Shown: in pieces, positions 18,217-27,870 of the stretch | How the letters are laid out: each line of letters begins with the position of its first letter | Numbering within the stretch: the stretch's first letter is position 1 | Source of the DNA: Bacteroidaceae bacterium | GTDB lineage: Bacteria; Bacteroidota; Bacteroidia; Bacteroidales; Bacteroidaceae | Length of the DNA: 60,665 nt | Direction: 5' to 3' | Assembly: GCA_017642425.1 (NCBI GenBank) | Contig: JAGCPB010000058.1 | Coordinates: 123,106-183,770 of the forward strand | Notes under the pieces: generated by a model | The model's database searches: none | What the model saw: the letters and a program-made list of their open reading frames with translations, nothing else | What the model was told of the DNA's origin: nothing | Program-made: the position numbers and the translations under genes

Positions 18217-19185
18217 TTAGTCAAATACTTTACCGTGATTCTCGGCCAGGTTTATCATCTCCTCATACTGATCGGCATCCAGGTCCATGAAATAGTAGTT
18301 GATGGGGTTTACGTCCTTGTTGCCTATCCAGACCTCATAATGTACATGGGGACCGGTACTCTTGCCTGTGGAACCGGCCTGACCAATCTCCTCACTGCGT
18401 ACCACCTGCTGCCCCTCTTTTACCAGTATCTTGCTCAAATGTGCATAGCGCGTCTTGTAACCGTATCCATGGTCTATCTCAACCAGATTACCATACCCCG
18501 TCTTCCACTTGGCATACACCACCTTGCCGTTACCCGTAGCGTAGACCGGAGTGCCTGTATCACAGGTAAAATCCATACCGTGATGGAAACGGCGCACATG
18601 ATATATCGGGTCATTGCGGTATCCGTAACCTGAAGCCGTACGTTTAAGGTCCTTGTTGGAGACCGGCTGTATGGCCGGCAGACAGGCCAGTTTGTTCTCC
18701 TGCTCACGTGACAGTTCCAACACCTCATTGAACGACCGGGTCTGCATGTAAAGCTTCTTGCTCAGCATATCCACTTTCTGCGCTGTATTGACTACAAGGT
18801 CGGCACTTGACATATCTGTAAGCTCGGCATACCTGTTTGTTCCGTTAAAACCGGCCTGACGTGTAGTCTCAGGAACAGGGTCTGCCTCCAGAAGCACACG
18901 GTACAGGTTGTCATCACGCTCCTCTATGTCATGAAGCACAAGCAGGGCGTCATCGACCTTACGTGAAAGCATACGGTATTGTGACTGCAAACGGCTGTTC
19001 TCCACAAGAAGTTCATCTACCTGAGGAGTATTGATTACAAACCAGTATATGATAAAGAATACTCCGCCCAACAGGACTGAAAGCAGAAAACGCCACAGCC
19101 AGGAGAGCAGCCTCTGACCCAAGGTGGGGAATACCCTGCGATAGACCCTGCGGTTGGGATCATACTGATAGTAAATCTTCCTCAT
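18217..19185 (-). CDS. M23 family metallopeptidase (peptidoglycan endopeptidase)
   Basis: The 322-residue protein has a short cytoplasmic head rich in Arg/Tyr, one membrane helix (about 29-50), a coiled coil and a C-terminal LytM/M23 domain. The zinc-site motifs are H-H-G-M-D-F and H-V-H-Y-E, so it is likely active. It is expected to trim peptide cross-links in the periplasm. The frame is open 22 codons further upstream, but M-R-K-I-Y-Y-Q-Y-D-P at 19185 is the credible start. It is transcribed divergently from alaS, with a TATTTTTG -7 candidate at 19210-19203. Confidence 0.9.
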   Translation of the reverse strand: MRKIYYQYDPNRRVYRRVFPTLGQRLLSWLWRFLLSVLLGGVFFIIYWFVINTPQVDELLVENSRLQSQYRMLSRKVDDALLVLHDIEERDDNLYRVLLEADPVPETTRQAGFNGTNRYAELTDMSSADLVVNTAQKVDMLSKKLYMQTRSFNEVLELSREQENKLACLPAIQPVSNKDLKRTASGYGYRNDPIYHVRRFHHGMDFTCDTGTPVYATGNGKVVYAKWKTGYGNLVEIDHGYGYKTRYAHLSKILVKEGQQVVRSEEIGQAGSTGKSTGPHVHYEVWIGNKDVNPINYYFMDLDADQYEEMINLAENHGKVFD

Positions 19186-19202
19186 AATCTTGATAGAACA
19201 CG

Positions 19203-19231
19203 CAAAAATAGTAAAAAAAGCCGTAAATTTG
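19203..19231. promoter_or_regulatory. divergent promoter pair between the M23 gene and alaS
   Basis: Two consensus -7 elements face outward in the 77-bp gap: TATTTTTG on the minus strand (19210-19203) for the peptidase, and TAAATTTG on the plus strand (19224-19231) for alaS. Clear -33 TTG partners are not seen at ideal distance. Confidence 0.45.
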
Positions 19232-19262
19232 CACCTCAAATTGAAACACAATTGTTTAAGAT

Positions 19263-21869
19263 ATGATGACAGCTAAGGAGATACGTGAATCTTTCAAGAG
19301 TTTCTTTGAGAGCAAAGAGCACCTGATAGTACCTTCCGCACCCATGGTGGTAAAGGATGACCCCACTCTTATGTTCACCAACGCCGGAATGAACCAGTTC
19401 AAGGACATCATTCTGGGCAACCGCGCCCCCAAGAGCCGCCGTGTGGCAGACTCGCAGAAGTGCCTGCGCGTAAGCGGCAAGCACAATGACCTGGAGGAGG
19501 TAGGTCACGACACCTATCACCACACCATGTTTGAGATGCTGGGCAACTGGTCATTCGGTGACTACTTTAAGAAAGAGGCCATAAGCTGGGCATGGGAGTA
19601 TCTGGTCGATGTTCTCAAACTTGACCCCAAGAACCTGTACGCCACTGTCTTTGAAGGCAGCAATGAGGAAGGTCTGGAGCGTGACAACGAGGCTGCCGCC
19701 ATTTGGGAGCAGTTCCTGCCCAAGGATCATATCCTGAACGGAAACAAGCATGACAATTTCTGGGAGATGGGCGATACCGGTCCCTGCGGCCCATGCAGTG
19801 AGATCCATATGGATTCACGCTCCGATGAGGAGAAGGCCAAGGTACCCGGCCGTGAACTGGTAAACAAGGACCACCCCCAGGTAATAGAGATATGGAACCT
19901 TGTGTTCATGCAGTACAACCGCAAGGCCGACCACTCACTCGAGCCCCTGCCCGCCAAGGTAATTGATACCGGAATGGGATTTGAGCGTCTGGTACGCACC
20001 CTGCAGGGCAAGCAGTCCAACTATGACACCGATGTATTCCAGCCCATCATCAAACAGATCGGCGCCCTTACAGGCAAGCAGTACGGTCAGGATGAGAAGG
20101 TTGACATAGCCATGCGCGTGGTGGCTGACCATATCCGCACCATCGCATTCAGCATCACCGACGGCCAGCTGCCTTCAAACGCCAAGGCCGGTTACGTGAT
20201 TCGCCGCATATTGCGCCGTGCAGTACGTTACGCCTACACGTTCCTGGGCCAGAAGGAGGCATTCCTTTACAAACTTCTGCCTGTACTGATTGACAACATG
20301 GGTGATGCTTATCCCGAACTCGGTGCTCAGAAGACACTCATAGAGAAGGTCATCATTGAAGAGGAAGAATCATTCCTGCGTACCCTTGATACCGGCATCA
20401 AACTGCTTGACAAGGTTATGGCCGATGCCAAGACTGCCGGTACAACCGTTATCAGCGGTGTGAACGCTTTTACGCTTTACGATACTTACGGATTCCCGCT
20501 TGACCTTACAGAGCTTATTCTGCGTGAGAACGGCATGACCGTAAACATAGAGGAGTTCAATGCCGAGATGGCCAAGCAGAAGGCCCGCGCCCGCAACGCT
20601 GCCGCCGTTGAAAACGGTGACTGGGTAGTACTCAAGGAGGGTGAGACTGAGTTTGTAGGCTATGACTTTACAGAATATGAGACCTCTATCCTGCGCTACC
20701 GCGAGGTCAAGCAAAAGAGCGGCGTAATCTACCAGATTGTACTTGACAAGACCCCGTTCTATGCCGAGATGGGCGGTCAGGTAGGTGACAAGGGAGTCAT
20801 AGTAAGCGAATTCGAGACTATAGAGATACTTGACACCAAGAAGGAGAACGGTCTGCCCATCCACATAACAAAGAAACTCCCCGAGCATCCCGAGGCTCCC
20901 ATGATGGCTTGCGTGGATACCGACAAGCGTCATGCCTGTGAGGCCAACCACACCGCAACCCACCTGCTTGATGAGGCTCTGCGTGAGGTTCTGGGTACAC
21001 ACGTTGAGCAGAAAGGTTCACTGGTAAGCCCTGACGGCCTTAGGTTTGACTTCTCACATTTCCAGAAAGTGACCGATGAAGAACTGCGTCAGGTAGAGCG
21101 TCTTGTTAATGAGAAGATACGTGAAGACCTGCCCCTGCAGGAGCACCGCGACCTGCCAATTGAGGAGGCCAAAAAACTTGGTGCCATAGCTCTCTTTGGT
21201 GAGAAGTATGGCGACAAGGTCCGCGTTGTCCAGTTCGGCCAGTCCATAGAGTTCTGCGGTGGTGTCCACGCCACATCAACCGGACGCATCGGACTGTTCA
21301 AGATCATATCCGAGAGTTCAATCGCAGCAGGAGTACGCCGCATCGAGGCCGTGACAGGTCAGGCTGTTGAGGAGATGATTTACGGACTCCAGGATACCAT
21401 CACCGCACTCAAGAACATACTGCCCGGCTCATCAATAGAGACAGCTGTAAAGAAAGCAATAGATGAAAACGCAGCCCTCAAAAAACAGATAGAGGAGTTC
21501 ATGAAAGAGAAGACTGTCCAGCTTAAGGACAAACTCATTGGGCAGGCACGCAATATCAACGGCATAATGGTTATCAGCGCTGTCATACCCGCTCCCGCCG
21601 CAGTGGTCAAGGACCTGGTGTTCGGCATCCGCGCCGAGAAGCCAGCCGGCACTCTGGTTATCATAGGAAGTGAGGAGAATGGCAAGCCCATGCTGACCGT
21701 AAGCGTAAGTGATGACCTGACATCACGCTTCAACGCAGGCCAGATGGTACGCGAAGCAGCCAAGCTCATCCAGGGCGGAGGCGGCGGCCAGCCCCACTAC
21801 GCCACCGCCGGCGGAAAGAACCCGGGGGGTCTTCAGGCTGCTGTGGAATCAATCATAAAGACTATCTGA
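19263..21869 (+). CDS. alaS: alanine--tRNA ligase AlaS
   Basis: An 868-residue class II synthetase with the N-terminal catalytic core ([17 protein letters not shown]). The editing domain shows the zinc ligands H-T-A-T-H and C-G-G-V-H. The C-Ala/DHHA1 region ends in a glycine-rich [14 protein letters not shown]. All elements are present and the length is usual. The start could be either of two adjacent ATGs (19263 or 19266). A TAAATTTG element lies 31 bp upstream. Confidence 0.96.
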
Positions 21870-21902
21870 GAGGAGTGAGTTAAATTAAAGATAAAAAAAG
21901 TA

Positions 21903-21941
21903 GTGGCCCACACGACTAAGGTGTGAGCCACATTTAATCCT
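21903..21941 (+). terminator. probable terminator after alaS
   Basis: An 11-bp stem with one mismatch (21903-21913 with 21921-21931, 7-base loop) is followed by an AT-rich tract ending in TTTT. It separates alaS from the convergent accessory island and could act on both strands. Confidence 0.55.
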
Positions 21942-21984
21942 TTTATAGTGTTAATGGTGCGACAAAGGCATCCGCTAGCACTTT

Positions 21985-22428
21985 CTAAATCAATTGATAT
22001 GAAGTCCTCTTTTCAATACTATCTGATGCAATGATAGGAAAAGGATATGGAGCGAGAGCGGTATCAGCCAGCTCTCGTGCAAAATAACCACGAGCAGTAC
22101 TAAACGCTATGCTGTTAAGCATAGGCAGGAAATTACTTTCAATACGGAACTTATCCTCTCCATCCTGCGCAGTGATGTATGACTTTAAATCTACGACATC
22201 AAATGCTATTGTCAGACTGCCAGAAAACAATGTCGTATTGTCCAGCAGATATGTCATTGTAACAATAACCTTAATCTGTGAATTATCTCTGTCCAGTATT
22301 ACCTGGTCATCATAGCGAATCTTTAAAGATGACACATCACCTTCAATCCTTGCGGGAGCGGTAGTATTAATAACCGGATTACCCACAAACGCCAAGCGTA
22401 TCTTAATATTATCGTCACTCATTGGCAT
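21985..22428 (-). CDS. SecB-like chaperone of a toxin-antitoxin-chaperone module
   Basis: The product, about 147 residues, has a beta-rich body (alternating strands from about 5 to 90) followed by a long helix ending in R-G-Y-F-A-R-E-L-A, then A-P-Y-P-F-P-I-I. This layout and the terminal proline-rich stretch resemble SecB. SecB-like proteins in TAC modules hold an antitoxin through its C-terminal tail. The frame extends 18 codons upstream inside the antitoxin gene; I chose the ATG at 22426-22428, which overlaps the antitoxin 3' end by 14 bp (a second ATG at 22422 is equally plausible). The family assignment is by fold pattern and context, so it is moderate. Confidence 0.55.
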   Translation of the reverse strand: MPMSDDNIKIRLAFVGNPVINTTAPARIEGDVSSLKIRYDDQVILDRDNSQIKVIVTMTYLLDNTTLFSGSLTIAFDVVDLKSYITAQDGEDKFRIESNFLPMLNSIAFSTARGYFARELADTALAPYPFPIIASDSIEKRTSYQLI

Positions 22429-23032
22429 AAATATATTCGTTATAAAGATTCTTCTTTGTGGTAGGTTTCTTAAAGCCGCCACCTAATAGTACACGTGCCG
22501 GGAATGAAGGAAAAAACGCCTCATAATCCCGCACCCTAATATCGATTATCTCATATAAAGCAGGATGCAATGACATCTCAATGGCACGATAGTACTTGTC
22601 ATACTGCTTGTCTGTAAATGCAAACCTTGCAGCTTTAAGCATCTCCTTCAGGTTTGCTGGTTCCATAGCCAGGGCAAGCAGATTACCTACAGAAAGCGTT
22701 GGAACTACTCCCTCTTCATACAACCCGAATTGGTTCTCACCTAAGCCCAATATCACAGACATTGCGACCGATGGAATACCGTAGCGTTCTCTCATCTGTT
22801 TCAATTCTTCTGCCAGTGGAATAGAATGCCTACGGCGATAAGTGTCATAGATTTGTTTAAGATTAGCATTATCCAGTTCCTCATCCGTAAATTCCGCACC
22901 GCTGTCAACGCAATGATAATAGCGCTTTTCAAAAGGAATAATCTCACCTCGATACTTTACCGATGACGATTCAGTACACAGTTCCAATTTTCCCCCTGTA
23001 AGTGGACTCGGTTTGTCAACAATCTGTTTCAT
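22415..23032 (-). CDS. MqsA-like antitoxin with C-terminal extension
   Basis: The 205-residue protein begins with a degenerate zinc-ribbon-like region (P-L-T-G-G-K, then Y-Y-H-C-V-D-S-G-A-E-F-T). An Xre-type HTH (about 75-125, including L-G-L-G-E-N-Q-F-G-L-Y-E-E-G) fits MqsA-family antitoxins. About 70 extra residues follow, rich in aromatics (Y-E-A-F-F-P-S-F-P near 170). In TAC systems such a tail is the chaperone-addiction segment. Only one of the usual ribbon cysteines is evident, so zinc binding is doubtful. Its ATG overlaps the stop of the full-length toxin frame by 4 bp. Confidence 0.7.
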   Translation of the reverse strand: MKQIVDKPSPLTGGKLELCTESSSVKYRGEIIPFEKRYYHCVDSGAEFTDEELDNANLKQIYDTYRRRHSIPLAEELKQMRERYGIPSVAMSVILGLGENQFGLYEEGVVPTLSVGNLLALAMEPANLKEMLKAARFAFTDKQYDKYYRAIEMSLHPALYEIIDIRVRDYEAFFPSFPARVLLGGGFKKPTTKKNLYNEYIYANE

Positions 23033-23412
23033 TTCTTTTCGGTTATGCCCTTTAACGGCAAGTACATATCATATTCAGCCAGGTGAAATGATATGCAATA
23101 CACATTAGGCTTTGGCAACAAATAAATCTATATATAGCACAACTTCCCTTCTATCCTTTTCCCAAACTTCCAGACCGGGTTAGCACCAGGCTTTTCATTT
23201 GGATCCGGCCCTTCATAATAATCCTCCGGTTCAAGTTTTAGTATCCATTCCTTCTTTTTATCGGCCTTATCCCAATCCATATCAACCATGAATTGTTCAT
23301 TCTTGTCTTTCTTTTCATATACAATGTAGCCGTTCAAAAACTCCAACCAGACTTTCAGCTGATCCAAGAACTGCTTGACTTCATCATATGTTGCAGTAGT
23401 TTTGTTTCCCAT
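23029..23412 (-). pseudogene. MqsR-like toxin gene interrupted by an in-frame TAG
   Basis: Translation from the ATG at 23412 stops at a TAG at 23128-23130 after 94 residues (ending K-L-C-Y-I). The same frame continues for 32 more codons, including C-I-S-F-H-L-A-E-Y, to a TGA overlapping the antitoxin ATG by 4 bp. The whole 127-codon frame has family-like features: D-Y-Y-E-G-P, then W-K-F-G-K, then the C-I-S-F-H tail. Related toxins, as I recall them, have Y-I-K-I at the stop position, so a single AAG/AAA-to-TAG change explains it. Without the tail the toxin is expected to be inactive. Confidence 0.72.
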
Positions 23413-23554
23413 CAGTCTGGTTATTCATAATTAAGTAATGGTACATTTCTCTGGCAAAAATAATAAAAAATATAGAAATCCCACGGATTCATTGAGAATC
23501 TCATAGAATTTCTCATAGATAATAAAAAATATCCTTATTGTGTCTTGTTTAAGC

Positions 23555-23833
23555 TTAGCAACTACCTGTAATCTTATTCTTCACCAGCTTCACAAAACCA
23601 ATCATTTCTCTTACTGCCGTTTGCAAGTAAAACCTGATGCTCATCCATATATTAGTTTTATAATACTGCGTACTGAAGTGATAACTTGACGTATCCTTGT
23701 ATAGTCGGTGTACTCTTATAAAAGGATTATCAGCCATAAGTTCATGCAGCACATGGCTAAACTTCTCCTTTGATATTCCAGGATGTACAAAAGCGTAGTC
23801 AGCAATAGCAGCACAAACTATTATAGTCCCTAA
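23555..23833 (-). pseudogene. orphan reading frame without a start codon
   Basis: On the minus strand an open frame of 92 codons lies between a TGA at 23834-23836 and the stop at 23555. It has no ATG; the only start is an internal GTG at 23752 (65 aa). The sequence is protein-like, with D-Y-A-F-V-H-P-G-I-S-K-E-K-F and a basic end, so it looks like the 3' part of a gene whose 5' end is lost. I do not recognise the family. It is 3' of the broken ligase-like gene. Confidence 0.35.
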
Positions 23834-24555
23834 TCACTTTTTTCTCCTCAATAATGGATAGCGGAACGGATATGAAAACAATGATAGCACACCTATTCCT
23901 GCCAAGACCGTTATTCCAACAAAAGACTCAGCATCAGGATTCTTGATGTAATGCCTTAAGGTTAATATGATTCCTGTCAACAAGACAGACATACCCAACA
24001 ACCCAAAGTTGACAGCCACCAGCGCATACTCGTTAAGAGGATGTGTGGTATTATCGGCAAGCATCGGCAGCATTTTGCTGGTGCATTGTTCCAGATATTC
24101 TTCCTGATAAAGCATATACTGACTGCGGAATCCGTGAAGTCCATGTCCAATAAAGCAAGGATAAAAGGCAATGATACTACCAGAGCCGATGCCACCCCTG
24201 CCGGGTTGTCAAATCCCGCCATGATACGGAATCCATTATTGGATTGTACGGGCACAATACCGATTATCTGTAGCAGAGAATGTGTTGCCACAACCAAACC
24301 TATGATAAAAAATGGAACATAAATGACCTTGGGGCTAATCAAATCTATCTTTTCATCATCGTGTATACAAAATAGTATCTGGGATATTAAGACTGTCGCA
24401 CAGATAGAGATGCCCATACCAATCCATTTCATGGTTATCTGACCGTCAAATAGATTCCCCGTAAATGGACTTACACTTAGCAACAAAACCAAAGAGAGTG
24501 CCAACAACATGACACTCTCTAAGATGGTATGCAAGCCTGATTTGGCTGAAATCAT
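23834..24555 (-). pseudogene. O-antigen-ligase-like membrane protein gene with internal deletion
   Basis: The N-terminal frame (24555 down to about 24150) has four or five membrane helices and F-D-N-P-A-G-V-A-S-A-L. It then runs out of frame. The other frame takes over with G-H-G-L-H-G-F-R, Y-Q-E-E-Y, L-A-D-N and H-P-L-N-E-Y, then F-S-Y-P-F-R-Y-P. These are landmarks of the Bacteroidota Wzy/O-antigen ligase-like proteins that carry TPRs at the C-terminus. The central cytoplasmic/periplasmic region and the TPR part are missing. The junction near 24146-24152 therefore marks an out-of-frame deletion, and the product should be non-functional. Confidence 0.6.
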
Positions 24556-24571
24556 AATATGATATTAGTTT

Positions 24572-25849
24572 TTAATCCTGTATATTGGGATCCCAGACAG
24601 GACGAATGCAATTCGAGCCGGTTTTGTTATCACCCTGTACCTCAATCCTTCCTGTATCCGGTATATAGCGTCCGGTGCTGGCATTAACGTTAGCATTAAA
24701 CTTAAAAGAATAAGGATTGTCATCACCGCCAGGTGTTCCACACCAGTATGAATGATTAAGGTTGAATAGAATCTCTTTTCCGTTGGCACCAATCACAAAA
24801 CCCACAGGGGCGTTAACCTCCCTTGCTTCGCCATTATAGTAATTTGTATGTTTTACATATTCCACTTTTGATAAGTCACAATTGGCTATAAGTTCATCAA
24901 CATCAGCTTTGGTCGGCATTCTCCATTTTCCTCCAAGAATCTGATTGGCAGCATCAATTGGTGATGTTGACTCCCACTGGTAATATTTAGCCCCCCATGC
25001 ATAAACAAACTCGTAATGGCCAAGATCGCAGTTGGCCCATCTTATACCACTTGGTAATTCCAGATCAACCCACATTTGATCAGATGTCATTGTTGAGAAC
25101 GAACTCTCCATACCGTACATATATTCGTCATTACCTCCAGCAGTTTTATATTTAACGAACGGACGGCAATAATAACTCTTGTCTGGTTTCAGACCTGTCA
25201 ATGATTGAGTAATACTTGACTCGTAGTCACCGGTATATTTAAAGACACCACTGGCGGTATTAAAGTCTATATTCGATGATTCTGATAGCATAACACCGTA
25301 CTCACAATACTCTGCATCCGATGCATCTATTCCAAATTCAACTTCTGCGTTTGCATCAATATAGTGAATATCCTTCAAATTGATGTTTTTAATTCCGGGC
25401 CTGAACTCTAGGGTCTTGAATGTATGTACATTACTTATTTCGCGTACACTATTGTCACTGTTTTGTGAAAACAGGCAGAAACTGTACTCGGTGTCTGGAT
25501 ACAATTTTCCGATAGTACCGCTGAACGACTCATCGTTCATACCGTACTTATTGATGAACATCTGGCATTCTGCATTGTCATTGCCATCCTTCCAAGACTT
25601 GAAGATGCTCTCTGCCTGGTCTGATTTGACACAATACAGCACTCCGTGTTTTCCTAAGGCTATATCCACTTTTGATATGCCCTTGAACTGCCCTTTCAAA
25701 GAAGATGTAAATGCTGTGGTACTGACACTCTCAATTTTCAAACTGCTTGAGAAATCCGAATCAGAATCCGGCTGCTTGTCTCCGCATGATATCATGAACA
25801 CACATATCAATGAGACATAAAAACCTTTTGCTAATACTCTGCTATTCAT
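24572..25849 (-). CDS. lipoprotein with Fn3-like modules and a Fib_succ-type C-terminal domain
   Basis: The 425-residue protein opens with a lipoprotein signal (M-N-S-R..., lipobox ending M-I-S-C). Two beta-sandwich-like modules of Fn3 character follow (about 30-125 and 130-235, each with a Y-P-D-T-E-Y or K-P-D-K-S-Y turn). The C-terminal domain (about 250-425) carries V-D-L-E-L-P-S-G-I-R-W-A-N and G-G-K-W-R-M-P-T-K, the pattern also triplicated in the protein at 54433. It should be exposed at the cell surface. A TTG start 21 bp upstream is less likely than the ATG at 25849. The ligand is unknown. Confidence 0.75.
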   Translation of the reverse strand: MNSRVLAKGFYVSLICVFMISCGDKQPDSDSDFSSSLKIESVSTTAFTSSLKGQFKGISKVDIALGKHGVLYCVKSDQAESIFKSWKDGNDNAECQMFINKYGMNDESFSGTIGKLYPDTEYSFCLFSQNSDNSVREISNVHTFKTLEFRPGIKNINLKDIHYIDANAEVEFGIDASDAEYCEYGVMLSESSNIDFNTASGVFKYTGDYESSITQSLTGLKPDKSYYCRPFVKYKTAGGNDEYMYGMESSFSTMTSDQMWVDLELPSGIRWANCDLGHYEFVYAWGAKYYQWESTSPIDAANQILGGKWRMPTKADVDELIANCDLSKVEYVKHTNYYNGEAREVNAPVGFVIGANGKEILFNLNHSYWCGTPGGDDNPYSFKFNANVNASTGRYIPDTGRIEVQGDNKTGSNCIRPVWDPNIQD

Positions 25850-25883
25850 ATTACCAGTTTTAAAATACAATCATCAATATATT

Positions 25884-26149
25884 TTAGAAGTTCCATCCTG
25901 AATCTGGCGCATACAAGCCCGAATTAAGATTATAGTAGAAACCTGCTCTTTCTATTTTGCATTTATTATCACCCCAAATATGATATTCATGTTTATCCAT
26001 CCATAAATTATAGGCGTTTACTCCTGGATTATCTGAATTGTAATATAATGGGTAATCATTCGTTCCAACCCCTAACCATAAGTAATAGGCAGAGTAAATA
26101 CAACTGCCAAAATCAAAAGGAAAATGTTCTTTTTTCTCATAAAACTACG
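25884..26149 (-). pseudogene. frameshifted small secreted protein gene
   Basis: An ATG at 26139 opens 22 codons of a clean signal peptide (M-R-K-K-N-I-F-L...) that stops at TAG. A second frame without its own start overlaps it and continues to a TAA at 25884-25886, encoding an aromatic-rich region (Y-N-L-W-M-D, H-I-W-G-D, A-P-D-S-G-W-N-F). Joining the two by one frameshift would give a secreted protein of about 85-90 residues. The gene lies 34 bp before the lipoprotein gene on the same strand, behind a TACATTTG promoter element. Confidence 0.5.
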
Positions 26150-26168
26150 TTTTAAAGTTTGCTGCCGA

Positions 26169-26257
26169 CAAATGTAATGTCAGTTTACAGCGTATCACTT
26201 TAAAACGTGTCCCAAGTATGTCCCAATATTTACAGACGATGTCCCAAAATGTCCCAC
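26169..26257 (-). promoter_or_regulatory. promoter with four helically phased TGTCCCA boxes
   Basis: Four copies of TGTCCCA(A/C) on the plus strand start at 26208, 26219, 26240 and 26250, that is 11, 21 and 10 bp apart, close to whole helical turns. On the minus strand they lie 32-81 bp upstream of a consensus -7 element TACATTTG (26176-26169) that lacks a clear -33 TTG. This layout suggests an activator-dependent promoter for the broken secreted gene and the lipoprotein gene downstream. The regulator is not known; the adjacent TPR membrane protein is a candidate. Confidence 0.5.
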
Positions 26258-26298
26258 AGGGGGGTATTATACTGATTTACAGATAGTTAGCAAACAAA

Positions 26299-27870
26299 TT
26301 AATCGAATACCATTTTATATGTGTTTTTGGGTAATTTATTAGACAGGCGCATCTTAAGATTTCTGCTACCGGAATGAGAGATTGCAAAGAAAAGATGAAA
26401 ATCCTTCTGCATGAATCCAAGCATAGTAAATATGCAATAATCAATATCCATATCATTCACCTTATTACCGGATTTCTTGATATAATCTCTGAGCACATTC
26501 ATTGAATTATGGAACTTTGTATCAATCTCTTTTCTTTTATCTTTGGTAAGAGGTTCCTGCTTATTGATTAAATCGCACATTTCTTTGTATAATTCACCTT
26601 CTTTGAAACTGTCAATAATAGGCTGGAACTCCTGCTTCTTTTTACGCCTTTCTCTATACCAGTTAATCTGTAGCGCAATGCCAGTAATAATTAATACAAC
26701 TGTTAGTATAATGATTGGTAAGACAAAATGCTTATATAGTCTGGATTGGGGGAGAATACCAATACCTCTATTATTTAGTATGGTTTTATATATGATATTC
26801 GGATTATATGCAATCATTGATGAATCCATCCACAGGTTGGCCTGTTTTATATAATAGGCAGCAGAATCCTTATTTCCTTTTACAGTTTGGATTTCAGATA
26901 ATCTCCGGTACGTATTACAAAAAGTATTAGGATCTGTTGTTTCAGTCAAAGATAAATGATAGTATAATTGCGCGGAATCCATTTGGTTTAAACCATAATA
27001 AGCATCTGCCTTAACGGAATAAGCAGCTCCATTTGAGACATTGTGCTGGTTTCTACTCAGAAAAGAATCAATGTATTCAATAGATTGGTTGTAATTCCCA
27101 TCTTTAAATTGAGAAATCTTAGATAATTGGATAAGAGGAATGTCCTTAGAGTCATCTGATAGCCATTTACTGTCTTTCAGCTCTAAGAACATGGTTTGTG
27201 CCTCATCAAATTGCTCACGATAAAGCAAAAAGTTGGCTATGTTATATTCACAGAATGCTATTGCAGCCGAATCTTTTAGGCGTTCTGCGTTGATATGACA
27301 TGCTTTTATCATCTGCATTGCCTCATCAGCAAGATCATGTTCAACATATATATGCGCAATATTCTGTTCACAAAGGGCATAATAACGCACTAGGGTATCA
27401 TTAAACAGTCTCATTGCTTTAAGATAGGCATCAACAGCTGTGCTGTCCAGGCCATTCAGTCCTGAAACACATCCCAGACTGTACCATGACATGGCCGCAT
27501 GATAATCTTTATATTTTGTCCCGTAATAATCTGTAGCAATACGTATAAGGCTGTCATTTGTAATGTCACGGTACATCTTGTAGTCAATTTGTGTCTTAAG
27601 CATGGCATAGAGCGCACTGTTTCGTTTACCGGTGGGCACATCCATAGAGTAAATAAGGGAGTCTGCTGTCAACAAATCACTATCCATCAGTTGTTCCACC
27701 TTAGACAGTCTGCTATCTACACATCCTGTCAGCAACCACCCAATCGCAATAAACATAAAGGCTAACCTTGCGAACTTTCTCGTCCCCAATAAACAACCTG
27801 GTCCTTTCCAAACACCATTGGCGGTTTTGCCATTTTCCACCATCCTGTAGGCCATCTTCTCTGCTGTCAT
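26299..27870 (-). CDS. TPR membrane lipoprotein, putative regulator
   Basis: The 523-residue protein has an unusually long hydrophilic head before a lipoprotein-like signal (about 33-50, lipobox ending L-T-G-C). Helical TPR-like repeats follow (about 60-340), then a membrane helix (about 380-402), a basic/charged linker and a C-terminal helical domain (about 430-523, ending with R-N-L-K-M-R-L-S-N-K-L-P). Related Bacteroidota proteins end in a DNA-binding-like domain and act as one-component membrane regulators; that role is inference here. A TATTTTTG -7 candidate (27889-27882) lies 11 bp before the start. Confidence 0.65.
   Translation of the reverse strand: MTAEKMAYRMVENGKTANGVWKGPGCLLGTRKFARLAFMFIAIGWLLTGCVDSRLSKVEQLMDSDLLTADSLIYSMDVPTGKRNSALYAMLKTQIDYKMYRDITNDSLIRIATDYYGTKYKDYHAAMSWYSLGCVSGLNGLDSTAVDAYLKAMRLFNDTLVRYYALCEQNIAHIYVEHDLADEAMQMIKACHINAERLKDSAAIAFCEYNIANFLLYREQFDEAQTMFLELKDSKWLSDDSKDIPLIQLSKISQFKDGNYNQSIEYIDSFLSRNQHNVSNGAAYSVKADAYYGLNQMDSAQLYYHLSLTETTDPNTFCNTYRRLSEIQTVKGNKDSAAYYIKQANLWMDSSMIAYNPNIIYKTILNNRGIGILPQSRLYKHFVLPIIILTVVLIITGIALQINWYRERRKKKQEFQPIIDSFKEGELYKEMCDLINKQEPLTKDKRKEIDTKFHNSMNVLRDYIKKSGNKVNDMDIDYCIFTMLGFMQKDFHLFFAISHSGSRNLKMRLSNKLPKNTYKMVFD

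What the first reader, a model, noticed from the sequence alone, without database searches (positions are those of the whole stretch)
21985..23412. Toxin-antitoxin-chaperone (TAC) module whose toxin has a single in-frame stop
The order toxin (23412) -> antitoxin (23032) -> SecB-like chaperone (22428), with 4- and 14-bp overlaps, matches TAC systems such as HigBA-SecB of Mycobacterium tuberculosis, but with MqsR/MqsA-like components. The toxin frame stops at TAG 23128-23130 after 94 codons, yet continues in frame for 32 codons with a conserved-looking C-I-S-F-H tail to a stop that overlaps the antitoxin ATG by 4 bp. The simplest reading is one AAG/AAA-to-TAG change that killed the toxin recently, while the antitoxin and chaperone stay intact.
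Basis: partly seen in the sequence, partly recalled or inferred. Interest (0 to 1): 0.75.

Follow-up and report, generated by a model that had tools for sequence, protein, structure and literature searches.

The report
Toxin-antitoxin-chaperone operon with interrupted toxin
A Bacteroidales bacterium carries a three-gene toxin, antitoxin and chaperone module of a known phage-defence kind whose toxin gene is cut short by one in-frame stop, so it is probably a disarmed module.

The parts
23128..23412 (-). toxin frame, first 94 codons and the in-frame TAG (23128-23130); MqsR-like N-terminal three quarters
   Evidence: 49.2 bits to the profile of 23 intact relatives, model positions 3-87
23032..23127 (-). 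32 in-frame codons after the stop, homologous to the toxin family's conserved C-terminus
   Evidence: 18.3 bits alone, model positions 97-115; best of 2000 shuffles 9.1
23029..23032 (-). ATGA overlap of the toxin frame's natural stop with the antitoxin start
22415..23032 (-). antitoxin, 205 aa, MqsA family (N-terminal domain plus HTH)
   Evidence: NCBIfam TIGR03830 E 8.9e-17, 61.1 bits against a cut-off of 61.8; Pfam MqsA_antitoxin E 5.1e-4, below its cut-off; 16 of 16 aligned members match it at E 0.1 or better
22418..22576 (-). C-terminal extension of the antitoxin (about residues 153-205), candidate chaperone-addiction region, where relatives have the Panacea domain
   Evidence: alignment A4; Panacea in 15 of 16 members, not found here; role inferred
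21985..22428 (-). SecB-like chaperone, 147 aa
21903..21931 (-). terminator-like hairpin (11 pairs) followed by T run, about 50 bases after the chaperone
   Evidence: 1 found in the 2.2 kb scanned; shuffles mean 1.2, so the pattern alone is not significant

Best explanation
This is an MqsR-MqsA-SecB (MqsRAC-like) toxin-antitoxin-chaperone operon whose toxin has been disarmed by a nonsense codon. In the intact state (inferred from published MqsRAC, PanAT and HigBA-SecB work) the MqsR-like ribonuclease is held by the N-terminal part of MqsA, the HTH represses the operon, and a C-terminal tail makes the antitoxin depend on the SecB-like protein, so loss or capture of the chaperone, for instance in phage infection, frees the toxin. 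Here the toxin stops after 94 codons and lacks the C-terminal region; 7 of the 20 positions invariant among 23 relatives lie at or after the stop, so an active toxin is unlikely (inferred). The antitoxin and chaperone frames remain open and may persist as a relic, as an autorepressor, or as protection against related MqsR toxins arriving on mobile DNA. The early stop lies 95 bases before the antitoxin ATG, which would loosen the translational coupling that the 4-bp overlap implies (inferred).
For: Frames, overlaps and stop. Both toxin pieces match the family apart and in order. The scan of the window's own genome with the relatives' profile gives one place, with 1 TAG inside. MqsA assignment, SecB fold, PDC-M64 chaperone family. 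None of the 23 intact toxins stops there. Interrupted or shortened toxins beside long open antitoxins recur in L007, L021 and L031 (of 29 loci with a toxin match among 36 scanned) and in L125 and L144 (of 82 more, 12 of which share their place with earlier loci). A toxin without internal stop beside a broken antitoxin was seen in none of these; in L030 and L122 both are broken; L180 has only a toxin remnant. MqsRAC from E. coli protects against T2 and its toxin is countered only with both A and C (PMC9519451, passages).
Against: No reads: the TAG may be an assembly error or a minority allele (assembly of 114 contigs, 87% complete). The truncated protein was not tested. Direct Pfam and NCBIfam scans of the window's pieces found no MqsR hit; the Pfam MqsR match of the relative whose table was shown is below the cut-off (14.2 against 26.2 bits). 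The tail also departs from one further invariant position beside the stop (by eye), which may mean a divergent lineage or later drift. Antitoxin and chaperone could be decaying too; with no close relative, selection on them could not be measured. Chaperone dependence of this antitoxin is inferred only. The plasmids that carry related toxins are all predicted non-mobilizable, which weakens the protection role.
Confidence: 0.72

Rival explanations
1. The stop is an assembly or sequencing artefact, or one allele in a mixed population; the module is intact in most cells.
For: The genome is an assembly of 114 contigs, 87% complete. Both sides of the stop look family-like.
Against: A plain in-frame substitution, not an indel, which is the less typical assembly error (general knowledge). 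Toxin interruptions occur in other genomes too. No second copy in the assembly.
Confidence: 0.17
2. The 94-residue product is itself functional, as a milder toxin, a decoy or a regulator that still binds the antitoxin.
For: 10 of 13 family-invariant positions before the stop are kept (by eye); divergence of the N piece from that expected by the antitoxin is small (residual -0.073, while the intact toxin of L010 has -0.075).
Against: None of 23 intact relatives is that short; 7 of 20 invariant positions lie at or after the stop. The tail downstream keeps its motif, which a recent loss predicts and a long-lived truncated form does not.
Confidence: 0.06
3. The whole locus is a passive remnant in a decaying, horizontally acquired island; antitoxin and chaperone do nothing. 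(This overlaps with the best explanation, which leaves their present role open.)
For: The locus lies in an AT-richer stretch (GC 0.37-0.42 for 22000-23999 against 0.50-0.53 for 19000-21999) next to frames at 23555-24555 that look broken.
Against: Two long overlapping frames stay open with a conserved MqsA half and SecB fold.
Confidence: 0.3
4. TAG is read through or recoded, so full-length toxin is made at low level.
For: The frame after the stop keeps the conserved motif.
Against: TAG is the natural end of a relative's toxin in the same family (L009).
Confidence: 0.03

Closest known systems
MqsRAC toxin-antitoxin-chaperone system (E. coli C496_10, PMC9519451; V. cholerae MqsRA with SecB, PMC5105189; passages of both seen)
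   Same: Gene order and kinds: MqsR-like toxin, MqsA-like antitoxin with C-terminal extension, SecB-like chaperone.
   Different: Toxin interrupted; antitoxin shares the linker of MqsA-Panacea proteins; no tblastn match of the chaperone on 72,556 plasmid records. The published proteins themselves were not aligned here; activity untested.
MqsR-PanA (MqsA half plus SocA/Panacea domain; PMC10440598, PMC8832971, passages of both seen)
   Same: Nearest sequence relatives found for both toxin and antitoxin; MqsA half homologous to about residue 152.
   Different: No Panacea domain found here; a SecB-like gene follows instead.
HigB-HigA-SecB-like modules of Bacteroidales, PADLOC candidate defence system PDC-M64
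   Same: The chaperone belongs to this family; same toxin-antitoxin-chaperone order.
   Different: Toxin piece and antitoxin have no PDC-M64 match, and no MqsA or MqsR match was found at those loci.
M. tuberculosis HigBA1-SecB(TA)
   Different: HigB/HigA toxin and antitoxin; functional there.

Membership tests
MqsRAC (toxin-antitoxin-chaperone) | operon order toxin, antitoxin, SecB-like chaperone, overlapping | tested here: met
MqsRAC (toxin-antitoxin-chaperone) | MqsR-family toxin | tested here: inconclusive
   17 of 23 relatives hit MqsR_toxin at E 0.1 or better, best 2.1e-4; the window's pieces hit no MqsR family directly
MqsRAC (toxin-antitoxin-chaperone) | full-length toxin | tested here: not met
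   TAG after 94 codons of a 127-codon frame
MqsRAC (toxin-antitoxin-chaperone) | MqsA-family antitoxin | tested here: met
   TIGR03830 E 8.9e-17, 61.1 bits, just under the cut-off of 61.8; aligns with 15 relatives
MqsRAC (toxin-antitoxin-chaperone) | SecB fold of the third protein | tested here: met
MqsRAC (toxin-antitoxin-chaperone) | antitoxin C-terminal extension that imposes chaperone dependence | tested here: inconclusive
   extension of about 53 residues present; dependence needs an experiment
MqsRAC (toxin-antitoxin-chaperone) | toxicity neutralised only with antitoxin plus chaperone | not testable with these tools
   bench work
MqsR-PanA (PanAT) | Panacea domain in the antitoxin | tested here: not met
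   15 of 16 members of A4 hit PF13274, the window's does not at E 0.1 nor at E 10
HigBA-SecB / PDC-M64 | PDC-M64 toxin and antitoxin | tested here: not met
   no PDC-M64 hit of toxin N piece or antitoxin at E 10, while the genes before the chaperones of L016 and L018 do hit
HigBA-SecB / PDC-M64 | PDC-M64C chaperone | tested here: met
   profile PDLC04763, E 6e-7; same profile hits the chaperones of L016 and L018

The most novel reading that the evidence does not exclude
A Panacea-bearing MqsR-PanA module lost its Panacea domain and took on, from a HigBA-SecB-like (PDC-M64) module of its own order, a SecB-like chaperone plus a chaperone-dependent tail: one sensor module exchanged for another on the same antitoxin. 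This would make Panacea and chaperone addiction interchangeable sensing parts, and would be testable by grafting.
Probability: 0.3. Interest if true: 0.55.

Novelty: new member of a known kind. Interest (0 to 1): 0.3.

Why it matters
It adds a MqsRAC-like module from Bacteroidales in which the Panacea domain usual in its relatives is absent and a SecB-like chaperone of another toxin-antitoxin family stands beside it. The role of Panacea in MqsR-PanA antitoxins is left open in PMC10440598 (passages), where in the one such pair dissected the MqsA-type zinc domain alone neutralises the toxin; a natural swap of Panacea for a chaperone-dependent tail would support the idea that both are sensors. 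The interrupted toxin itself is an ordinary fate: orphan antitoxins are reported as common (PMC7192599, PMC10790755, passages).

Tried and rejected
Close relatives: the antitoxin alone gave none in genome contigs and viral contigs, and 7 plasmid and 3 phage records, all under 60% identity; so no intact allele of the same species and no selection test. Tree of 101 MqsA halves: the window sits on a very long branch (2.64) next to another long branch (L012), place unresolved. PDB sequence searches: the chaperone profile gave 9 chance-level hits (best E 0.3), the toxin profile none. The PADLOC Cas12a hit of the toxin piece (E 0.0018) covers about 50 of 950 positions and was rejected as chance; so was NCBIfam RHE_PE00001 (E 0.088). 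A repeat search upstream gave only an AT-rich two-copy direct repeat and a 9-nt palindrome. The divergence test for relaxed constraint on the toxin was inconclusive. The fold of an intact relative toxin could not be had, so its active site was not mapped.

Full report
Observation. The minus strand carries a toxin frame from ATG 23412 to TAG 23130-23128 (94 codons), 32 more in-frame codons to TGA 23031-23029, an antitoxin 23032-22415 (205 aa) and a third gene 22428-21985 (147 aa), with overlaps of 4 and 14 bp as reported. A terminator-like hairpin follows at 21931-21903, though as many are expected by chance in the stretch scanned.

Toxin. Neither piece hits a curated family at a meaningful score. 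By phmmer on fetched loci the N piece finds toxins directly upstream of MqsA-family antitoxins. Twenty-three relatives without internal stop were aligned (A3; 20 invariant positions). 17 of 23 match Pfam MqsR_toxin at E 0.1 or better, best 2.1e-4, and of four plasmid matches two are annotated as MqsR family toxin. Against the profile of the 23, the N piece scores 49.2 bits over model positions 3-87 and the tail, alone, 18.3 bits over 97-115; the best of 2000 shuffled tails scores 9.1. So the frame on both sides of the stop is the homologous toxin, and the stop is internal. By eye 10 of the 13 invariant positions before the stop and the five of the CISFH motif after it are kept; one invariant position coincides with the stop and one more, close to it, is changed. 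All 23 run on past this point, to about 114-127 residues in all.

Is it a lone accident? In a six-frame scan of 36 MqsA-family loci, window included, 29 have a toxin match. Internal stops occur in four: the window, L007 (same genus), L031 (near the start, so a restart is possible) and L030; L021 has lost the C-terminal half and L012 matches only from model position 19. In L007, L031 and L021 the antitoxin frame is long and open (329-333 aa); in L030 it is broken too. Seven of the 36 have no toxin match, one of them (L004) cut by the contig end. Among the 82 loci brought in by the toxin profile (which favours intact C-termini), 4 have internal stops (L117, L122, L125, L144) and 2 viral ones match only in part; 12 of the 82 share their place with earlier loci, L117 with L031. 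L125 and L144 have MqsA and Panacea in one frame, L122 has its antitoxin split. So five relatives besides the window have an interrupted or shortened toxin and a long antitoxin, and in none of the loci scanned does a toxin without internal stop stand beside a broken antitoxin. This asymmetry is what addiction predicts and makes the window's state ordinary. Orphan antitoxins are reported as common (PMC7192599 and PMC10790755, passages).

Antitoxin. NCBIfam TIGR03830 (MqsA family) E 8.9e-17, just under its cut-off. Relatives, the own genome counted each time: 14 of 101 near genomes, 5 of 37 of the genus, 28 of 393 of the order, 15 of 345 of the class. In the order search 23 of the 27 other matches have open frames of 329-383 aa and 4 are short or hold stops; in the class search 13 of 14 are 334-379 and one (162) ends near a contig end; none resembles the window's 205 aa. 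In alignment A4, 16 of 16 members match MqsA_antitoxin and 15 of 16 SocA_Panacea; the window's is the one without. Of the 82 loci just named (80 genome contigs, the best of 412 confirmed, and 2 viral contigs), 79 have MqsA and Panacea in one frame, L122 in two, L180 (viral) MqsA alone, L114 none (the toxin runs into the contig end); none has a chaperone match in the stretch fetched, up to 2.5 kb on each side. Homology of the window's antitoxin with these runs past the HTH through the linker to about residue 152, perhaps further, and then a tail of about 53 residues takes the place of Panacea.

What it is. Gene plan, antitoxin family and chaperone fold equal the published MqsRAC type: V. cholerae MqsRA with SecB and a C-terminal ChAD (PMC5105189, passages) and E. 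coli MqsRAC, which protects against phage T2, needs both A and C to counter the toxin, and loses protection when C is oversupplied (PMC9519451, passages). The toxin's interruption disarms it in all likelihood. In the MqsR-PanA pair dissected in PMC10440598 (passages) the MqsA-type zinc domain neutralises the toxin and Panacea alone does not, so loss of Panacea need not cost neutralisation; that makes the swap reading (novel case) plausible, but direction and donor are unproven, since the tree cannot place the window's long branch. The alternative is an old Bacteroidota MqsRAC lineage that never had Panacea.

How old is the stop? Unknown. N-piece identity to 23 relatives averages 0.311 against 0.384 expected from antitoxin identity, residual -0.073, next to the lowest of 24; an intact toxin (L010) shows -0.075. 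So there is no clear sign of long decay, and no proof of recency. No read data were available. No second MqsR-like place was found in the 87% complete assembly, so I found no other resident target for the antitoxin; related MqsR modules occur on plasmids of Bacteroides and other genera, all predicted non-mobilizable.

Print check. Searches for TAC with MqsA, Panacea with SecB, TAC with MqsRA, and TAC with Bacteroid- listed no paper whose title or abstract start tells of a Bacteroidales MqsR-MqsA-SecB locus; only open-licence papers are held, and I saw passages of eight, none whole.

Noticed in passing
window 23555-24555 (-): Frames upstream look broken: 23977-24555 and 23834-24115 overlap in different frames and may be pieces of one membrane protein (weak TfpM hit, E 0.059), and 23555-23752 is an unmatched 65-aa fragment.
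   Followed up: partly
window 22000-27500: AT-richer stretch (GC 0.33-0.42) between alaS (0.50-0.53) and the helicase gene at 28.5 kb, suggesting an inserted island.
   Followed up: no
L180:2468-3131: A viral contig carries a 166-aa MqsA without Panacea beside a 40-aa toxin remnant: a second solitary antitoxin of this family.
   Followed up: partly
L007:1142-1486; L031:1713-1958; L021:787-1008; L125; L144: Interrupted or shortened MqsR-like toxins with long open antitoxins in five other genomes.
   Followed up: partly
L122:2854-3846: MqsA and Panacea halves lie in two separate frames (178 and 147 aa), and the toxin there has an internal stop too.
   Followed up: partly
genome G152 contig C110, 94202-97609: An MqsA-Panacea locus and a SecB-like chaperone match lie within about 3 kb of each other on opposite strands, a setting in which such modules could exchange parts.
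   Followed up: no
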